DNA of 64,000 nt, taken from positions 338,419-402,418 of the forward strand of contig NZ_WLZY01000006.1 in NCBI RefSeq assembly GCF_010122465.1. Direction: 5' to 3'. The position numbers were made by a program, and so were the translations under genes. The first letter of the stretch is position 1. Each line of letters starts with the position of its first letter. The notes under the pieces are model-generated. The model saw nothing but the letters and a program-made list of their open reading frames with translations, was not told the origin of the DNA and did not search any database. Shown piece by piece: positions 1-6,748 of this stretch. This DNA is from Phytoactinopolyspora mesophila (GTDB lineage Bacteria; Actinomycetota; Actinomycetes; Jiangellales; Jiangellaceae).

Positions 1-459
1 ACGCGGACGTGGATGCTGATGTTGACGCGGACGTGGATGCTGATGTTGACGCGGACGTGGATGCTGATGTTGACGCGGACGTGGATGCTGATGTTGACGC
101 GGACGTGGATGCTGATGTTGACGCGGATGTCGATGCTGATGTTGACGCGGACGTGGATGCTGATGTTGACGCGGATGTCGATGCTGATGTTGACGCGGAC
201 GTGGATGCTGATGTTGACGCGGATGTCGATGCTGATGTTGACGCGGACGCGGACGCGGACGCTGATGTTGACGCGGACGTCGATGCTGATGTTGACGCGG
301 ACGTCGATGCTGATGTTGACGCGGACGCGGACGCGGACGCTGATGTTGACGCGGACGTCGATGCTGATGTTGACGCGGATGTCGATGCTGATGTTGACGC
401 GGACGTGGATGCTGATGTTGACGCGGATGTCGATGCTGATGTTGACGCGGACGCGGACG
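1..459 (+). repeat. 12/24-bp tandem repeat array encoding VDAD (array 1)
   Basis: A degenerate 12-bp unit encodes Val-Asp-Ala-Asp. Pairs of units form a 24-bp higher-order repeat (GTTGACGCGGAC then GTGGATGCTGAT) with GTC/GTG, GAC/GAT and GCG/GCT exchanges. About 38 units are in the window and the array runs off the left edge. The same 24-bp variants occur in array 2 (4405-4668). The array is open in several frames and on the other strand, which produces false ORFs. Confidence 0.95.
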
Positions 460-620
460 GCGACAAAGACGCCAACGGCGACAAGGACGCCAACGGTGAT
501 GACCTGCCTGACACCGGTGTAGGCAGCATGGTTCTCATCACCATGCTTGTCGCATTGCTGCTCGGAGCCGGTGTGATCGCATACACCGCGAGCAACAGGC
601 GCCAGGCAACGATCGAGTAG
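3..620 (+). CDS. LPXTG-anchored surface protein with Val-Asp-Ala-Asp repeats (5' end outside window)
   Basis: The reading frame is open from the window edge, so this is the C-terminal part of a larger protein. About 150 residues are VDAD-type repeats with occasional ADAD variants. A short GDKDANGD spacer follows, then the sorting signal LPDTG (about 35 residues from the end), a hydrophobic segment ([18 protein letters not shown]) and a basic tail (SNRRQ). This is a classical sortase substrate, so the repeat is expected to be a surface stalk on the cell wall. The acidic repeat should bind divalent cations, but this is inference. The complete protein at 2996-4792 ends the same way and is followed by the same two genes, so this is probably its paralogue. 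ATG/GTG codons inside the repeat are not real starts. Confidence 0.85.
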
Positions 621-646
621 ACGATCCGTCTATCCGACGAACGGAC

Positions 647-684
647 CGGTGGGTCCGCACCGAATGGCCGGTGTGGACCCACCG
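647..684 (+). terminator. Stem-loop terminator after the first surface-protein gene
   Basis: A 14-bp stem (CGGTGGGTCCGCAC with GTGTGGACCCACCG, one mismatch) closes a 10-nt loop, 27 bp after the stop codon. No U-tract follows, as is common in actinobacteria. It lies between the structural gene and the DUF5819-HTTM pair, so it may lower downstream expression. Confidence 0.7.
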
Positions 685-777
685 ATTCTCGTGATACCTC
701 TACTTGAGGCAGCACAGACAGTGCGGGCATGAAGCTCGGGAGCAGGCTGGTGGACCTGCGGGGTTAGGGGCAAGTGG

Positions 778-1512
778 ATGCAGCAAACGAGGCCGGTCTG
801 GCTCAAGTTCCTGGCTGGCATAGCTGGCTTAGCTGTCGCGGCACATTTGGCTGTGACCGCGTTATTCGTGGGTCCTGACAACGCTGCGAAGGACGCGTTG
901 AAGGAGCCGATGAACGCGTACATGCTCCCGATGTTTCAGCAGAACTGGAGCCTCTTCGCGCCGAACCCCATAGGAACCGAACGATCGTTGCTGGTGCGGG
1001 CTTGGTTCGACGACCAACGCCACACCGAGTGGGTGGATGTGACGGAACTGGAAATCGACGCCGCGGTTTTGCACAACCTGACGCCCTCGAGAGTTGGGAT
1101 TGTCACCCGGCGAGTCGCTACCCGGATCGGCCAGCAGCACGGGCGCATGACCACCGAGGAACGGCGCGCGCTGGCCAGTCACTATCACGACGATGCGTGG
1201 AACCGGCTTAATGCCCGGTTGATGCGAGAGGAAGACCGCTCGCCGGCAAGCCGCATCGCTTACGTGCTCAGATACGATCGCGCGATCACCGCCTATGCGA
1301 CCCAGTTTGCCTACGCCTGGTGGGGCGAGGATGCCGGAATCAAGTACGTGCAGTTCAAGACCGAAGAAGAACGAGCCATCAGCTTCGCCGACCGGCATCG
1401 CGATCTAGACCCAAGAGTGACCACCCGCGAATTCGGACGCCGGCCGCTACTGGAGCACGACGGGCAGGACCGTGAGGCGTTCGCCGCCGCCATTGAGAGG
1501 TTCGCCAAATGA
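778..1512 (+). CDS. DUF5819 family protein, copy 1
   Basis: A 244-residue protein of unknown function. One N-terminal membrane segment (about residues 8-31) precedes a predicted extracytoplasmic domain. It shares with its paralogue at 4911-5705 the block FQQNWSLFAPNP (about residues 59-70), a TEWVDVTELE-type strand, a WNRLN segment, a YATQ.A.A.WGE block and a C-terminal FG.RPLLEHDGQD segment. The ATG follows a purine-rich GGGGCAAG. The stop overlaps the start of the HTTM gene as ATGA, so the two are translationally coupled. From general knowledge DUF5819 genes often adjoin HTTM genes, which suggests a subunit or partner of that membrane enzyme. Confidence 0.75.
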   Translation: MQQTRPVWLKFLAGIAGLAVAAHLAVTALFVGPDNAAKDALKEPMNAYMLPMFQQNWSLFAPNPIGTERSLLVRAWFDDQRHTEWVDVTELEIDAAVLHNLTPSRVGIVTRRVATRIGQQHGRMTTEERRALASHYHDDAWNRLNARLMREEDRSPASRIAYVLRYDRAITAYATQFAYAWWGEDAGIKYVQFKTEEERAISFADRHRDLDPRVTTREFGRRPLLEHDGQDREAFAAAIERFAK

Positions 1513-2609
1513 GTGCGCCAGCTCCGCCGCTGTGGAATGAACATGTGTCGCCGAAGCTGCGCTTCGGTGAGGAATGGCTGCTGGGCGCGAAACGCGCCAC
1601 CTACGGTATCGCCCTTGTCCGGATCTTGTTTGGCTTGACTGCTCTGGGATTCCTGGCTGCGAACTGGCTGAATCGACATTATCTCTGGGGCGACGCCGCG
1701 CGCTGGCTGGAGCCGATCGATGACAACGGTGGCTTCACCTGGCCGTTTACGTTCTTCCACGGTGGTGGTAGTCAGCTCGAGCTGAATCTGAAGCTTGGCC
1801 TGGTGGCCGTGCTCCTGGTGTTGCTCGTGCTCGGGTGGCGCACCAGAATGCTTGCGCCGATCATCCTCCTGCTCTGGGTGAGCTTGATCGAGGCACAGCC
1901 GATCTATGGCGACCAAAGCGACAACATCTTCCGGATCCTCTTCTTTTACATGTGCTTTGCTGATACATCCGGGCGATGGTCGCTTGACGCCCGCCGGCGA
2001 GCCAAACAGGCCGCCGGCCAATGGCAGAGCCCCATACAGCTGAAGATCTCACCCGAGCTACGTTCGAACGCGTCGATGGTCGCCATTTTGTTTCATAATC
2101 TGGCGATCCTGGCCGTCGGCGCACAGATCTGTATCATTTATGTCGCTTCAGGTCTGTACAAGGTTCAGGGTGAATTCTGGCAGGACGGCACGGCGGTCTA
2201 TTACCCCATGCAGGTTGGCCAGTACGCCCCATGGCCGGCGCTCAACGATTTCCTGGGTTCAAGTGCCCTCGGCGTGATGGTCATCACGTATTTCTCCGTG
2301 CTGATCCAGATCTTCTTCCCGTTGATGCTCCTGCGGCGCACGACGCGCGTACTGGCTCTGATCAGCGTGGCGGGCATGCATCTTGGAATTGCCGTGATCA
2401 TGGGCCTGCCGTTCTTCTCCTTGTTCATCTTGGCCGGCGACATGGTATTTATCCGGGACTCCACGTACGTCAGCATCCAGCGCTGGGCTCGTGGTAGATG
2501 GCGGCAACGGCGTGACCAGCGTGAGAGCAAGAAGGCGGCTGAGCTGAAACCCGGGCTGGAGTCCGAGCAGGAGCCGGTGTCCGTGTCTTCCGCGGCTCGC
2601 GCCGGCTGA
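1509..2609 (+). CDS. HTTM domain membrane protein (vitamin K-dependent carboxylase-like), copy 1
   Basis: A 366-residue polytopic membrane protein of the HTTM family, which is homologous to the membrane part of gamma-glutamyl carboxylase. Hydrophobic segments lie near residues 33-55, 95-135, 140-155, 195-220, 255-280 and 285-310. Family motifs are F.D.SGRWSLDARRR (about 150-163) and SGLYKVQGEFWQDG with Lys218. By remembered alignment this lysine matches the carboxylase's catalytic lysine, while the position of its second key residue, a histidine, is Ile140 here (SDNIF). The charged C-terminal tail is cytoplasmic by inference. The start overlaps the DUF5819 stop and a terminator follows. True carboxylase activity is not established for this family. 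Confidence 0.8.
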   Translation: MSAPAPPLWNEHVSPKLRFGEEWLLGAKRATYGIALVRILFGLTALGFLAANWLNRHYLWGDAARWLEPIDDNGGFTWPFTFFHGGGSQLELNLKLGLVAVLLVLLVLGWRTRMLAPIILLLWVSLIEAQPIYGDQSDNIFRILFFYMCFADTSGRWSLDARRRAKQAAGQWQSPIQLKISPELRSNASMVAILFHNLAILAVGAQICIIYVASGLYKVQGEFWQDGTAVYYPMQVGQYAPWPALNDFLGSSALGVMVITYFSVLIQIFFPLMLLRRTTRVLALISVAGMHLGIAVIMGLPFFSLFILAGDMVFIRDSTYVSIQRWARGRWRQRRDQRESKKAAELKPGLESEQEPVSVSSAARAG

Positions 2610-2630
2610 CTCGGGCGGCAAAAGATCATC

Positions 2631-2658
2631 GGCCGGCCCTTGTGTCCGAGGGCCGGCC
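2631..2658 (+). terminator. Stem-loop terminator after HTTM copy 1
   Basis: A perfect 10-bp stem, GGCCGGCCCT with AGGGCCGGCC, and an 8-nt loop lie 21 bp after the HTTM stop. It separates the first module from the second. Confidence 0.75.
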
Positions 2659-2995
2659 GAGGCGCGTCCTGGAGTGCTGCCGCGAGCCTGGTGGCCGGGA
2701 GTGGCGAGCCACGATATGCGGCTTATGGCTTCATCTATGACTCATAGTAGTGGGATGGAAAATCATGCCGTGGGCACCGTCGGACTATATGCCCGATTTG
2801 GGCAACTTACCCCTCGTGTATTCAATTGATACATACGCGCCTGCCTAGCGCCTGGACGGTCACAAATTATGTCCAAACGTATGATCGTTCTGCCTACGAC
2901 AAGCGAACTTCATGCCGATAGTGTCGGGGTCACGTCGCAGAGCGAATTAGTAGTGCCTGCGACAACCACTTTGGTACTGCCGTAGGGGAGAAGGC
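2659..2995 (+). promoter_or_regulatory. Intergenic promoter region of the second surface-protein gene
   Basis: This stretch holds no gene. It is more AT-rich than its surroundings and contains small palindromes: CTATGA-C-TCATAG (2735-2747), GCCC-GATTT-GGGC (2791-2803) and a GTAT/ATAC pair around CAATTG (2818-2832). A strong ribosome-binding site, GGGGAGAAGG, ends just before the ATG at 2996. I could not assign a firm -35/-10 pair. The palindromes may be operators. Confidence 0.4.
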
Positions 2996-4792
2996 ATGAC
3001 GTTTGACAGTAGAAAGCGCCGACAGCTGCTTAGCAGCAGCGTCGCCGCAGGGGCCGTAGCGGCCCTGACGTCGACGGCGCTGGCGATGCCAGCGTCGGCG
3101 GCAGAGGGAGATTACTCGCGGGCGGAAGCCCGATTCCTGGCGGGCGAGGTCCTCGGTGTGGACCTCGACGAAATCGTCGAGCTGGCCGGCGTCGAGGTCG
3201 AGAACTTCGGCACCGAGGAGCCAGTCACCGAGGCTAACCCGCTGGACATCACCATCCTCGACACCATCGACATCGACATCCCGGGCGGCATCCAGCTGCC
3301 GCTGAGCGACATCATCGAACTCGGTGCGGTCAACCAGTGGGCGGACGCCAGGGACAACGGTACGTCGAGCGCGGCTACCGGCGCTGTCGCCGACAACGGC
3401 GGCGTCGGCACCGGTGTGGACGCCGGTTTCCCGGGTAACGCCAACTTCAACCTCACCAACCTGCTCGGTGAGAACTTCACCGACCTGATCGCCGATCTCG
3501 AGCTCGAACTCGGCGCGATCTCGTCGGAGGCGCATCTGGTTGGTCCTACCGACTTGGAGTTGCAGGACACCGAGGATGTCGGTGACGGCTTCACCCTCAC
3601 TCGCGACTACGAGATCGCCGGTGGCTACCTGAAGCTTGAACTTCCGCTGCTGGGTGGTCTGCTGCCGGACATTCTCAACAGCGTCGGCGAGGTCGACGAC
3701 GAGGTCAACGCGTCGCTGAGCGAGCAGGGTCTGACCAACTCGCTCGGATCGCTGGGCTCGAACGATGACGAGGTCGCCAGCGATGCCCGGGGCGCGGTCG
3801 CAGAGATGCTCAGTGAGCCGGTGGCCAAGTCGGCGATCGAGCTGGACCTGGGCGCGGGCACTCTGATCATCGATCTCAACGAGCTGCTCGACGGCGGCCT
3901 GAACGGTCAGCCGCCGAACACCGAACTGCTCAGCTCCGCAGTGCTGGGAGGTCTCCTTGGCAACCTGACGGACCTGCTGGACGACCTGCTGGGTGACATC
4001 CTGGGCCTGGTGCAGGAGTCCGTCGAGCAGACTGTTGAGCAGGCCCAGGCCGACGACGCCGCGGCTGATGAGGCGCTCGAGGCCGCTATTGGCCTCGGTG
4101 ACATCCTCGATGGCCTGCTGGGCCTGCTGAACCTCGACGAGCTGATCGACGATCTCGGTGACGTCCTAGCCAAGGTGATCTCCATCAAGCTGAACTACCA
4201 GCCCGATCAGCCGATGAACAACAGCGCCCAGGCCGAGATGCTGCGCAGCATCCCGCTCGCGGGCGCCGACACGGCCGACCTCGAGTCCGGAGGCCCGTTC
4301 CGGGTGTCGGCTCTCTACATCGACGTGCTGCCGGCCGACAGCCTGGCAGTTGTCGACCTGGCTCGCTCCGAGGTCGGACCGAACCTGGCCCAGGAGCAAG
4401 AGGTCGAGGTCGACGTCGACGCGGATGTCGATGCTGATGTTGACGCGGACGTGGATGCTGATGTTGACGCGGATGTCGATGCTGATGTTGACGCGGATGT
4501 CGATGCGGACGTGGATGCTGATGTTGACGCGGATGTCGATGCTGATGTCGATGCGGACGTGGATGCTGATGTTGACGCGGATGTCGATGCGGACGTGGAT
4601 GCTGATGTTGACGCGGACGTGGATGCCGACGCTGACGCGGAGGTCGACGCCGACGCTGACGCCGACGGTAATGGCCTGCCCGACACCGGTTCGAACATCC
4701 TGTGGCTGCTTCTTGTGGTCGGCCTGCTGGCTGCCGGTGGCTACACGATGTACATGACGAGCCGCAACCGCAAGGCGGCGGCACAGGGGTAA
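2996..4792 (+). CDS. LPXTG surface protein, choice-of-anchor G-like, with Asp-rich VDAD repeat
   Basis: A 598-residue secreted protein. The signal peptide has a basic start (SRKRR), a hydrophobic core and likely cleavage after ASA near residue 36. The body (about 37-470) is acidic and rich in Ile/Leu/Asp segments, including IDIDIPGG and many LLDDLL-like stretches. It resembles the actinobacterial choice-of-anchor G family, moderately sure. A VDAD array follows (about 470-560), then LPDTG, a hydrophobic segment and the tail SRNRK, so a sortase should attach it to peptidoglycan. A strong RBS precedes the ATG. DUF5819 and HTTM genes follow after a terminator, repeating the order at 1-2609. Confidence 0.8.
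4405..4668 (+). repeat. 12/24-bp tandem repeat array encoding VDAD (array 2)
   Basis: About 21 units of the same degenerate 12-bp repeat as array 1, with the same 24-bp variants. It is shorter than array 1, which fits slippage or recombination changing copy number. The last units drift to [13 protein letters not shown] before the sorting signal. Confidence 0.95.
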
Positions 4793-4830
4793 CTACGTAC
4801 TCCCCTTAACTAGGTCTCGTGCCTAGCCAG

Positions 4831-4866
4831 GTGGGCCGGCGCCACACGGCGCCGGCCCACCGTTTT
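4831..4866 (+). terminator. Strong rho-independent terminator after the second surface-protein gene
   Basis: A perfect 13-bp GC-rich stem (4831-4843 with 4848-4860), the tetraloop ACAC, and a short T-run (CGTTTTG). It stands between the surface-protein gene and the DUF5819-HTTM pair, as in the first module. Confidence 0.9.
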
Positions 4867-4910
4867 GTCGTCGGCAGACGCGAGCCGGTGCGGTCGTCTA
4901 ATCTTGCGGG

Positions 4911-5705
4911 GTGTCCGACAAGCAGGACGAGCAACGCTCAGACTACGTACCACCTATCGCCCGGGGGATAGCCTTCTTCCTCGTAGGGCTCCTTGGCATC
5001 CATTTCGCGGCCACCTTCTTGTGGAATGCACCGGACAATCCGATCAAGGACTCCGTCCGGGACGAGATGCGCAGCTATATCCAGCCGTTCTTTCAGCAGA
5101 ACTGGAGCCTGTTCGCGCCGAATCCGGTGAGCAGTGAAGGGGAGGTGCTGCTGCGGGCGCGGACTGAAGACCCGGTCACCGGTGATGTCCGGACCACGGA
5201 ATGGATCTCGCCCACTGAACTCGAGTGGAGCGTGGTGCGGGACAACCCGGCGCCGTCACGCGTCAGCCGCCTCTCGTCCAATCTTCATCGGCGGCTCAAC
5301 ACGGCGTGGAACCGGCTGAACGATGAACAGAAGGACATCGTGGCTGACGACTACGACGACATGACCGTCTGGTCGCCACTCGCTGACGACCTGATCGAAG
5401 CGCAGGGTGGTGAGACATCGTCGCGGGTGGCCAACCTGGTGCGTGCCGACCGGGTGCTGACCGGCTACGCCACCCAGGTGGCTCGGGCAATGTGGGGCGA
5501 GAACATCGTGGCCGTCCAGTTCCAGTTGCAACGCACGCCGGTGCCCCGATGGGAAGATCGCATGGAGCCGGAGCCGGACAACCCCGACCGGACATATCGC
5601 CACTTCGGCTGGCGCCCGGTGCTGGTCAACGACGGCCAGGATGACGATGCGTTCGCGCGGACATTGCTGCGCCTGCGTGACCAGGTTCGGGGAGTGGCGT
5701 CATGA
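4911..5705 (+). CDS. DUF5819 family protein, copy 2
   Basis: A 264-residue paralogue of the protein at 778-1512, with a GTG start. One membrane segment lies at about residues 19-40 (ARGIAFFLVGLLGIHFAATF); the rest is predicted outside the cell. Shared blocks are FQQNWSLFAPNP, TEWISPTELEW, AWNRLN, YATQVARAMWGE and FGWRPVLVNDGQD. Function is unknown. The stop overlaps the ATG of the next HTTM gene by ATGA. Divergence from copy 1 is large outside these blocks, so the duplication is not recent at this gene, although the repeat arrays remain alike. Confidence 0.75.
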   Translation: MSDKQDEQRSDYVPPIARGIAFFLVGLLGIHFAATFLWNAPDNPIKDSVRDEMRSYIQPFFQQNWSLFAPNPVSSEGEVLLRARTEDPVTGDVRTTEWISPTELEWSVVRDNPAPSRVSRLSSNLHRRLNTAWNRLNDEQKDIVADDYDDMTVWSPLADDLIEAQGGETSSRVANLVRADRVLTGYATQVARAMWGENIVAVQFQLQRTPVPRWEDRMEPEPDNPDRTYRHFGWRPVLVNDGQDDDAFARTLLRLRDQVRGVAS

Positions 5706-6748
5706 TCGGCTCGCTGGCCCGTGACCTCTTCCGGCTGGTCGCATCCACTGCCGGAAGAGTGATCGATCAGGGCGAGCGCTGGCTGTTCGATCGCAAGAAA
5801 GCCACGTACGGCCTGTCGGTGATGCGAATGTGCCTCGGCGTCGCAATCGTCGGCTCGCTCACGGTCAACTTCGTCGATCGCTATTACGTATGGGGCCCTG
5901 GTGCCCGCTGGCTGCAGCCTTGGCTGGTGATCGACGACTGGGGGTTCCCGTTCACCGTCATCTTCACCCCGGACGACTCAACAGTGATGTTCACGGTGAA
6001 GTACCTCTGCCTGGGCGTTGTCGCCGTACTCTTCACGCTTGGCTGGCGCACTCGCGTGATCACTCCGCTGCTGCTGCTGATGCTCGCCAGCCTGATGCGG
6101 CTGAACCCGGTGGCAACCGATGCTGGTGACAACCTGACCAGAATCATGTTGCTCTTCATGTGCTTCGCCGATGTCAGCGCCCGATGGTCGCTAGACGCCC
6201 GGCGTCGTGCCGCCGCCGGGCCGCCGCGCCGCCGTATTCCGGCTTGGCCCGGCGTGCTGTTCCACAACGTTGCCTTGATCGCGATCGCCGGCCAGGTGTT
6301 CGTCGTCTATGTCGTGTCCGGGTTGTCGAAGGTGCAGGGGTCGATGTGGCAAGAAGGAGTCGGCCTCTACTATCCCTTGCGGATCGCCCAGTACGAGGCC
6401 TGGCCGGCGTTGAATGAACTGGTTTACTCCAGCGCGTTCTTCGTCACGGTCGGCAGTTATGTCACGGTCTTCGTTCAGGTCTTCTTCCCGTTGCTGTTGC
6501 TCCGGCGCGGCACCCGGATCATGGCGCTCGTGCTCGTCTTCTTCATGCATGTCGGCATCGCCGTGACCATGGCGCTGCCGTGGTTCTCGTTGGCGATTCT
6601 GGCCGCCGATGCCATCTTCATCCGCGACGATTCCTATCGGGCGGCGATGCGATGGCTGAGCCGTGCGAGGCGGGCCGATCCGGGCGGACTCGGCCCGGCT
6701 GAGCCGGTGCCTGTCGTCAGGCCCGAGGAGCAGCTGCGGCCGCTGTGA
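5702..6748 (+). CDS. HTTM domain membrane protein (vitamin K-dependent carboxylase-like), copy 2
   Basis: A 348-residue paralogue of the protein at 1509-2609. It keeps the YYVWGPGARWL block near the second membrane segment, F.DVSARWSLDARRR, and SGLSKVQGSMWQEG with Lys210 in the lysine position discussed for copy 1. The residue after the GDN motif is Leu, again not His. Several hydrophobic segments end in a basic and acidic cytoplasmic tail. No clear terminator follows. The whole module may modify, export or maintain the Asp-rich surface protein. This is inferred only from context. Confidence 0.8.
   Translation: MIGSLARDLFRLVASTAGRVIDQGERWLFDRKKATYGLSVMRMCLGVAIVGSLTVNFVDRYYVWGPGARWLQPWLVIDDWGFPFTVIFTPDDSTVMFTVKYLCLGVVAVLFTLGWRTRVITPLLLLMLASLMRLNPVATDAGDNLTRIMLLFMCFADVSARWSLDARRRAAAGPPRRRIPAWPGVLFHNVALIAIAGQVFVVYVVSGLSKVQGSMWQEGVGLYYPLRIAQYEAWPALNELVYSSAFFVTVGSYVTVFVQVFFPLLLLRRGTRIMALVLVFFMHVGIAVTMALPWFSLAILAADAIFIRDDSYRAAMRWLSRARRADPGGLGPAEPVPVVRPEEQLRPL

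What the first reader, a model, noticed from the sequence alone, without database searches (positions are those of the whole stretch)
1..6748. Tandemly duplicated module: Asp-rich LPXTG protein, DUF5819 protein, HTTM membrane protein
The order surface protein with VDAD repeat, DUF5819, HTTM occurs twice in a row. DUF5819 and HTTM overlap by ATGA in both copies. Repeated linkage to the same kind of surface protein argues that the DUF5819-HTTM pair acts on, or for, that protein. I propose a membrane-embedded modification system for the acidic stalk (for example carboxylation or oxidation of Asp residues, or quinone-linked folding). The function of the pair is not known to me.
Basis: partly seen in the sequence, partly recalled or inferred. 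Interest (0 to 1): 0.85.

Follow-up and report, generated by a model that had tools for sequence, protein, structure and literature searches.

The report
Adhesin locus with membrane-enzyme-like gene pairs
Next to genes for long cell-surface proteins, this actinobacterium carries two old, different copies of a two-gene membrane unit that resembles both the helper pair that matures a Bacillus toxin and the vitamin K enzyme of animals, so the unit probably matures the neighbouring surface protein, though not specifically its acidic tail.

Summary
Twice in a row a choice-of-anchor G (CAG) LPXTG protein with a VDAD stalk is followed by DUF5819 and HTTM, overlapping by ATGA. It is not a recently duplicated module. 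The two DUF5819-HTTM pairs are ancient paralogues (39% and 45% identical), both kept in 20 of 20 near-complete relatives; Jiangella and Haloactinopolyspora have them side by side after two CAG genes. CAG duplications are separate. The linkage reaches other actinobacterial families. The acidic stalk is not what is conserved: linked CAG proteins carry VDAD, EVDGT, QADA, ASAT or NANAP stalks, and Streptomyces pairs follow an ice-binding-like protein or no surface protein. HTTM's only PDB relative is human gamma-glutamyl carboxylase (E ~1e-16). The quinol base Lys218 is kept in 74 of 75 pair HTTMs, but His160, needed for Glu carboxylation, in none. Gene order and membrane anatomy match SdpC-SdpA-SdpB, although SdpA/SdpB family cut-offs are not met. 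Best reading: an SdpAB-like, GGCX-related two-subunit membrane enzyme that matures the upstream secreted adhesin. Asp-stalk modification and disulfide folding are disfavoured. The chemistry and the modified residue are unknown.

The parts
1..620 (+). C-terminal part of choice-of-anchor G protein 2: VDAD stalk, LPDTG sorting signal
   Evidence: ORF continues upstream into L034 7480-10038, NF033766 252.9 bits; LPDTG + hydrophobic segment + basic tail
778..1512 (+). DUF5819 protein A: one N-terminal TM helix, extracytoplasmic domain (orientation inferred)
   Evidence: PF19136 E 8.4e-29
934..969 (+). FQQNWSLFAPNP motif of DUF5819-A
   Evidence: most conserved block of alignment A3
1509..2609 (+). 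HTTM protein A, overlaps DUF5819-A by ATGA
   Evidence: PF05090 E 2.9e-9; TIGR04033 SdpB 47 bits, below its cut-off
2160..2162 (+). codon of Lys218 of HTTM-A, at the position of the GGCX catalytic base Lys218
   Evidence: alignment A2 and profile alignment to GGCX
2996..4792 (+). choice-of-anchor G protein 3: signal peptide, CAG domain, VDAD stalk, LPDTG
   Evidence: NF033766 225 bits over a cut-off of 45
4911..5705 (+). DUF5819 protein B (GTG start)
   Evidence: PF19136 E 1.4e-35; model pLDDT 86 with one N-terminal long helix plus alpha/beta domain
5091..5126 (+). FQQNWSLFAPNP motif of DUF5819-B
   Evidence: alignment A3
5702..6748 (+). HTTM protein B, overlaps DUF5819-B by ATGA
   Evidence: PF05090 E 3.2e-12; TIGR04033 44 bits; family profile A2 hits only GGCX in the PDB, E ~1e-16
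6329..6331 (+). codon of Lys210 of HTTM-B, aligned to GGCX Lys218
   Evidence: Lys in 74 of 75 related HTTMs

Best explanation
Each DUF5819-HTTM pair is a two-subunit membrane maturation enzyme that works like SdpA-SdpB and is built on the gamma-glutamyl carboxylase (GGCX) membrane core. Shown here by sequence: the linkage, the overlapping genes, the GGCX-type core with the Lys218/Trp223/His287/Phe299 positions kept and the His160 position replaced, the single predicted TM helix plus conserved FxQNWxLFAPxP motif of DUF5819, and the gene order secreted protein - small TM protein - HTTM as in SdpC-SdpA-SdpB. Inferred: the protein made upstream (here a choice-of-anchor G adhesin) is exported by Sec and handed to DUF5819 at the outer face of the membrane; HTTM binds a reduced quinone and uses its Lys-based carbanion-type chemistry, or a related base-catalysed step, to mature the adhesin before or during sortase anchoring. 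The target is not specifically the Asp of the stalk. The two pairs A and B are old, probably non-redundant paralogues, perhaps for different CAG proteins or different steps.
For: HTTM profile against the PDB: all 8 matches are human GGCX, E 8e-17 to 4e-15, with Lys218 aligned. In 75 related HTTMs: K 74, W 75, H287 position 72, F299 position 71; His160 position has 0 His. K218 is the base that deprotonates the hydroquinone and H160A impairs Glu carboxylation (PMC12589487). HTTM against an authentic SdpB: hhalign E 2.5e-14, probability 98%. An authentic SdpC-SdpA-SdpB operon in a Streptomyces-like genome has the same order and topology. SdpA and SdpB are required to process SdpC (PMC6818787). 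Both pairs present in 20 of 20 near-complete order members. Outside the home family, 9 of 14 CAG-bearing genomes have DUF5819; in 7 the pair directly follows the CAG gene and in an eighth (G338) a contig break lies in the stalk. In f8 the CAG gene is again flanked by two pairs. Streptomyces type-2 pairs directly follow an ice-binding-like secreted protein in 2 of 3.
Against: DUF5819 is not a member of SdpA by family models and its likeness to SdpA is only the motif (hhalign probability 4%). Its model has no PDB match, so homology to the GGCX lumenal domain is not shown. Streptomyces type-1 pairs have no surface-protein neighbour. Five of 14 non-home CAG genomes lack the pair, so CAG can work without it. 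No modification or activity is demonstrated.
Confidence: 0.55

Rival explanations
1. The pair covalently modifies the acidic stalk (carboxylation or oxidation of Asp).
For: VDAD/DADA/EVDGT stalks occur in nearly all linked CAG proteins of the home family, also in G608 and G680; CAG proteins of genomes without the pair lack acidic stalks.
Against: Linked CAG proteins of G685 (NANAP), G741 (ASAT), G279/G338 (Ala/Ser rich) and one of Haloactinopolyspora (GGAVGG) have neutral stalks, while the pair's HTTM in G685, G741, G279 and G338 keeps the Lys motif. Streptomyces type-1 pairs have no such neighbour. Stalk composition drifts between acidic and neutral types while the CAG domain and the pair stay.
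Confidence: 0.08
2. The pair is a split gamma-glutamyl carboxylase that makes Gla residues in the CAG domain, DUF5819 standing in for the lumenal domain.
For: GGCX-type membrane core with Lys218, Trp223, His287, Phe299 positions kept. The DUF5819 motif NWxLF resembles the GGCX linker WDMM next to the quinone pocket (sequence resemblance, inference).
Against: His160 of the Glu pocket is replaced in all 75, whereas the same genome has a single-chain VKGC that keeps Asn-His there. No sequence or fold match of DUF5819 to GGCX or VKGC. No Glu is invariant in CAG (A4).
Confidence: 0.1
3. The pair is not catalytic but is a membrane chaperone or export and anchoring factor for long surface proteins.
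For: Partners vary widely in fold and stalk (CAG, ice-binding-like, other LPXTG proteins) and share only export to the surface. No obviously modifiable residue is conserved in CAG.
Against: Near-invariance of the catalytic-type Lys, Trp and His over 75 sequences argues for chemistry.
Confidence: 0.2
4. Neighbourhood only: CAG genes and the pairs are both carried in a conserved region and are functionally unrelated.
For: CAG genes exist without the pair and pairs without CAG.
Against: Direct CAG-DUF5819-HTTM adjacency in four unrelated family groups (f1, f8, f9, f112), with CAG flanked by two pairs in both Phytoactinopolyspora and family f8.
Confidence: 0.05
5. Quinone-linked disulfide formation (DsbB/VKOR-like) for folding of the surface protein.
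For: HTTM is related to a quinol enzyme.
Against: Most CAG ectodomains have no Cys.
Confidence: 0.02

Closest known systems
SdpC-SdpA-SdpB (Bacillus subtilis sporulation-delaying protein system; TIGR04032/04034/04033)
   Same: Order secreted protein, one-TM small protein, HTTM protein as in the Streptomyces-like operon L156; overlapping genes for the membrane pair; HTTM homologous to SdpB; QxWxxFxxxP-type motif after the TM helix in both small proteins.
   Different: HTTM scores 44-47 bits against the SdpB cut-off of 178; DUF5819 is not hit by SdpA models and is larger; the cargo is a sortase-anchored adhesin-like protein, not a 42-residue toxin; an SdpI immunity gene was not noticed (not searched for).
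Gamma-glutamyl carboxylase / bacterial VKGC (PF05090 + PF22777)
   Same: Membrane core with the catalytic Lys218, Trp223, His287, Phe299 positions.
   Different: No fused lumenal domain; His160 position not kept; DUF5819 does not match the lumenal domain.
Linaridin HTTM proteins such as CrdG of corynaridin
   Same: HTTM protein thought to take part in maturing a ribosomally made peptide (PMC9927463).
   Different: Partner is an alpha/beta hydrolase, substrate a small peptide; mechanism unclear.
Choice-of-anchor G family (NF033766)
   Same: All three surface proteins of the locus are members over the cut-off.
   Different: Nothing found in the held literature on the family or on DUF5819.

Membership tests
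SdpAB maturation system | SdpB family score over the curated cut-off (178.4 bits) | tested here: not met
   47.0 and 44.3 bits; homology itself is clear
SdpAB maturation system | SdpA family match next to SdpB | tested here: not met
   No TIGR04034 or PF17418 match in the genome; hhalign probability 4%
SdpAB maturation system | Secreted precursor gene next to the pair | tested here: met
   CAG gene directly upstream of each pair; compare SdpC upstream in L156
SdpAB maturation system | Pair required to process the precursor | not testable with these tools
   needs mutants
Gamma-glutamyl carboxylase (VKGC/GGCX) | HTTM-type membrane core with catalytic Lys218 | tested here: met
Gamma-glutamyl carboxylase (VKGC/GGCX) | His160 of the Glu pocket | tested here: not met
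   Gly/Ser (one Ala) in 75 of 75
Gamma-glutamyl carboxylase (VKGC/GGCX) | Lumenal propeptide-binding domain (PF22777) in the same chain | tested here: not met
   HTTM-A and HTTM-B end after the membrane core; DUF5819 does not match PF22777 or the GGCX fold
DUF5819 (PF19136) | score over the gathering cut-off of 27.1 | tested here: met
   101.7 and 123.8 bits
HTTM (PF05090) | score over the gathering cut-off of 27.7 | tested here: met
   37.3 and 47.0 bits
Choice-of-anchor G (NF033766) | score over the curated cut-off of 45 | tested here: met
   252.9, 228.3 and 198.2 bits

The most novel reading that the evidence does not exclude
A two-subunit, quinol-dependent membrane enzyme of the GGCX superfamily, lacking the Glu-carboxylation histidine, installs an as yet unknown post-translational modification on sortase-anchored or secreted adhesins of actinobacteria, with different paralogous pairs for different partners.
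Probability: 0.3. Interest if true: 0.8.

Novelty: new variant of a known kind. Interest (0 to 1): 0.55.

Why it matters
The chemistry of SdpB and other stand-alone bacterial HTTM proteins is open. This locus gives a conserved, vertically inherited pair next to a large surface protein, so the question whether bacterial HTTM proteins modify proteins, and how, can be put to a mass spectrometer. It would extend the vitamin K carboxylase superfamily from blood clotting and peptide toxins to bacterial cell-surface adhesins.

Tried and rejected
DUF5819 as the split lumenal domain of GGCX: profile search of the PDB, Foldseek on a good model and hhalign against the genome's own VKGC gave nothing; only a short motif resemblance remains. 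DUF5819 as SdpA: family models negative, motif only. Fold of the CAG ectodomain: model pLDDT 80, no PDB match. A residue conserved in linked but not in unlinked CAG proteins: none seen by eye in A4 (not tested statistically). Literature on DUF5819, HTTM with SdpB, choice-of-anchor G, Jiangella LPXTG: nothing in the held library. The genome-contig scan was started from a narrow alignment (own three proteins) and so returned only the home family.
Full report
Observation. The six features are present at the coordinates given. Window 1-620 is the stalk and LPDTG end of a choice-of-anchor G (CAG) protein that begins upstream (L034 7480-10038). 778-1512 and 4911-5705 are DUF5819; 1509-2609 and 5702-6748 are HTTM; 2996-4792 is another CAG protein. 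DUF5819 and HTTM overlap by ATGA in both pairs. The genus is probably Phytoactinopolyspora: named genome contigs of the same lengths as those of the same-genus genomes carry that name.

What is duplicated. The two pairs are 39% (DUF5819) and 45% (HTTM) identical. All 20 near-complete genomes of the order have DUF5819 at least twice. In the HTTM tree, copies A and B form separate clades, each spanning Phytoactinopolyspora-type, Jiangella-type and Haloactinopolyspora-type genomes, so the duplication is older than these genera. In Jiangella and Haloactinopolyspora the order is CAG, CAG, DUF5819-A, HTTM-A, DUF5819-B, HTTM-B, without a CAG gene in between. The CAG tree shows separate, lineage-specific CAG duplications. 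So this is two ancient, retained enzyme-like pairs among several CAG genes, not one module copied twice.

Linkage beyond the family. In an even sample of 397 genomes of the phylum, CAG was over its cut-off in 5 and DUF5819 in 17. Together with a class sample, 14 genomes outside the home family have CAG; 9 of them have DUF5819. In 7 of the 9 the pair directly follows the CAG gene (G236, G279, G608, G680, G685, G709, G741). In G338 a contig break lies inside the stalk; in G711 the genes are on different contigs. In G236, G685 and G709 the CAG gene is again flanked by two different pairs, as in the window. The five without the pair are three genomes of one genus, G577 and G052. Conversely, in the phylum sample most DUF5819 genomes are of one genus code (g8), taken here to be Streptomyces from genome size and gene content (inference), without CAG. 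The pair examined there as type 1 has no surface-protein neighbour; type 2 directly follows an ice-binding-like secreted protein in two of three cases. One G236 pair follows a different LPNTG protein with a GTDNS repeat.

The stalk is not the constant part. The lowest-entropy 60 residues between CAG domain and sorting signal are VDAD or DADA in Phytoactinopolyspora, EVDGT in Jiangella, ETEV in G021, VEVDG in G608, DADT in G680, QADA in G236/G709, Ala/Ser-rich with little Asp in G279/G338, ASAT in G741, NANAP in G685, and GGAVGG in one Haloactinopolyspora protein. The pair's HTTM in G685, G741, G279 and G338 has the Lys motif. This speaks against Asp of the stalk as the conserved substrate. The counterpoint is fair: acidic stalks were found only in CAG proteins of lineages that have the pair; CAG proteins of genomes without the pair have Pro/Thr, TIG-like or no stalks. 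Most CAG ectodomains have no cysteine, which makes disulfide formation unlikely.

What HTTM is. A profile of 20 linked HTTMs finds only human GGCX in the PDB (E 8e-17 to 4e-15). In that alignment the GGCX base Lys218 falls on Lys210 of HTTM-B, Trp223 on Trp216, His287 on His283 and Phe299 on Phe295 (numbering from the offset between chain and full-length numbering; inference). In 75 distinct HTTMs these are kept in 74, 75, 72 and 71; the His160 position is Gly or Ser (one Ala) in all, never His. In GGCX, Lys218 deprotonates the hydroquinone, Trp223 and Phe299 line the ring, and His160 helps carboxylate Glu (PMC12589487). The genome also has a single-chain VKGC that keeps Asn-His at that place (L155 3868-5454). 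So the pair's HTTM keeps the quinol/base centre and lacks the Glu-carboxylation residue.

What the pair is like. NCBIfam scores both HTTMs as distant SdpB (47 and 44 bits; cut-off 178). hhalign against an authentic SdpB gives E 2.5e-14. That SdpB lies in a Streptomyces-like operon SdpC-SdpA-SdpB (TIGR04034 and TIGR04033 over their cut-offs, TIGR04032 at 92.5 bits just under its 99.2), with the order and topology of CAG-DUF5819-HTTM. [quoted passage not shown] DUF5819 has one predicted TM helix, a conserved FxQNWxLFAPxP motif after it and an alpha/beta domain; SdpA has QGWAFFTKSP at the equivalent place. Full homology is not shown: SdpA models do not hit, and the DUF5819 model has no PDB match. 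Hence it works like SdpAB but is not filed as a member.

Mechanism. I commit to an SdpAB-like maturation enzyme acting on the exported protein encoded upstream (0.55). Shown: linkage, overlapping genes, conserved catalytic-type residues, relation to GGCX and SdpB. Inferred: outer-face action, quinol dependence, substrate handing by DUF5819, identity of the substrate. Unknown: the modified residue and the chemical outcome. That A and B are both always kept suggests different tasks.

Limits. The 20/20 count is of one order and mostly two genera. The home-family loci are not independent. Gene calls in the Streptomyces neighbourhoods come from a simple GC-position caller of my own. Both trees are quick ones without bootstrap, and several long branches are unsure. 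Homology and adjacency do not show function.

Noticed in passing
L155:3868-5454 (G000:C6:115867-117453), outside the window: The genome also carries a single-chain vitamin K-dependent gamma-carboxylase homologue (HTTM E 1e-76, VKGC_lumenal_dom E 2e-31) that keeps the Asn-His of the Glu pocket.
   Followed up: partly
L034:9409-9418, directly before window position 1: A run of 10 N inside the VDAD repeat of CAG protein 2, probably an assembly gap, so stalk length is unreliable.
   Followed up: yes
L034:4687-6435: A third CAG protein with a short VDAD tail and no LPXTG (ends AERVIRG); similar anchorless CAG proteins occur in G019 (L067) and G020 (L149).
   Followed up: partly
L083:9738-11123 and L091:9943-11517: In two Streptomyces-like genomes a secreted ice-binding-like (PF11999) protein with a low-complexity tail sits directly upstream of DUF5819-HTTM.
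   Followed up: partly
L067:14635-16797: A non-CAG LPDTG protein with a DADA stalk stands in the place of the CAG gene before pair A in one relative.
   Followed up: no
L086:6785-8020 and L089:9220-10536: Shorter DUF5819-like/HTTM pairs of distant actinobacteria also lie beside LARTG and LPTTG surface proteins, the latter with a DDDGT repeat.
   Followed up: no
L074:10473-11386: DUF5819-B of G018 is split over two reading frames: pseudogene or sequencing error.
   Followed up: no
window 2-730, minus strand: Long antisense open frame (SASTSAST...) over the repeat, probably a by-product of the codon pattern.
   Followed up: no
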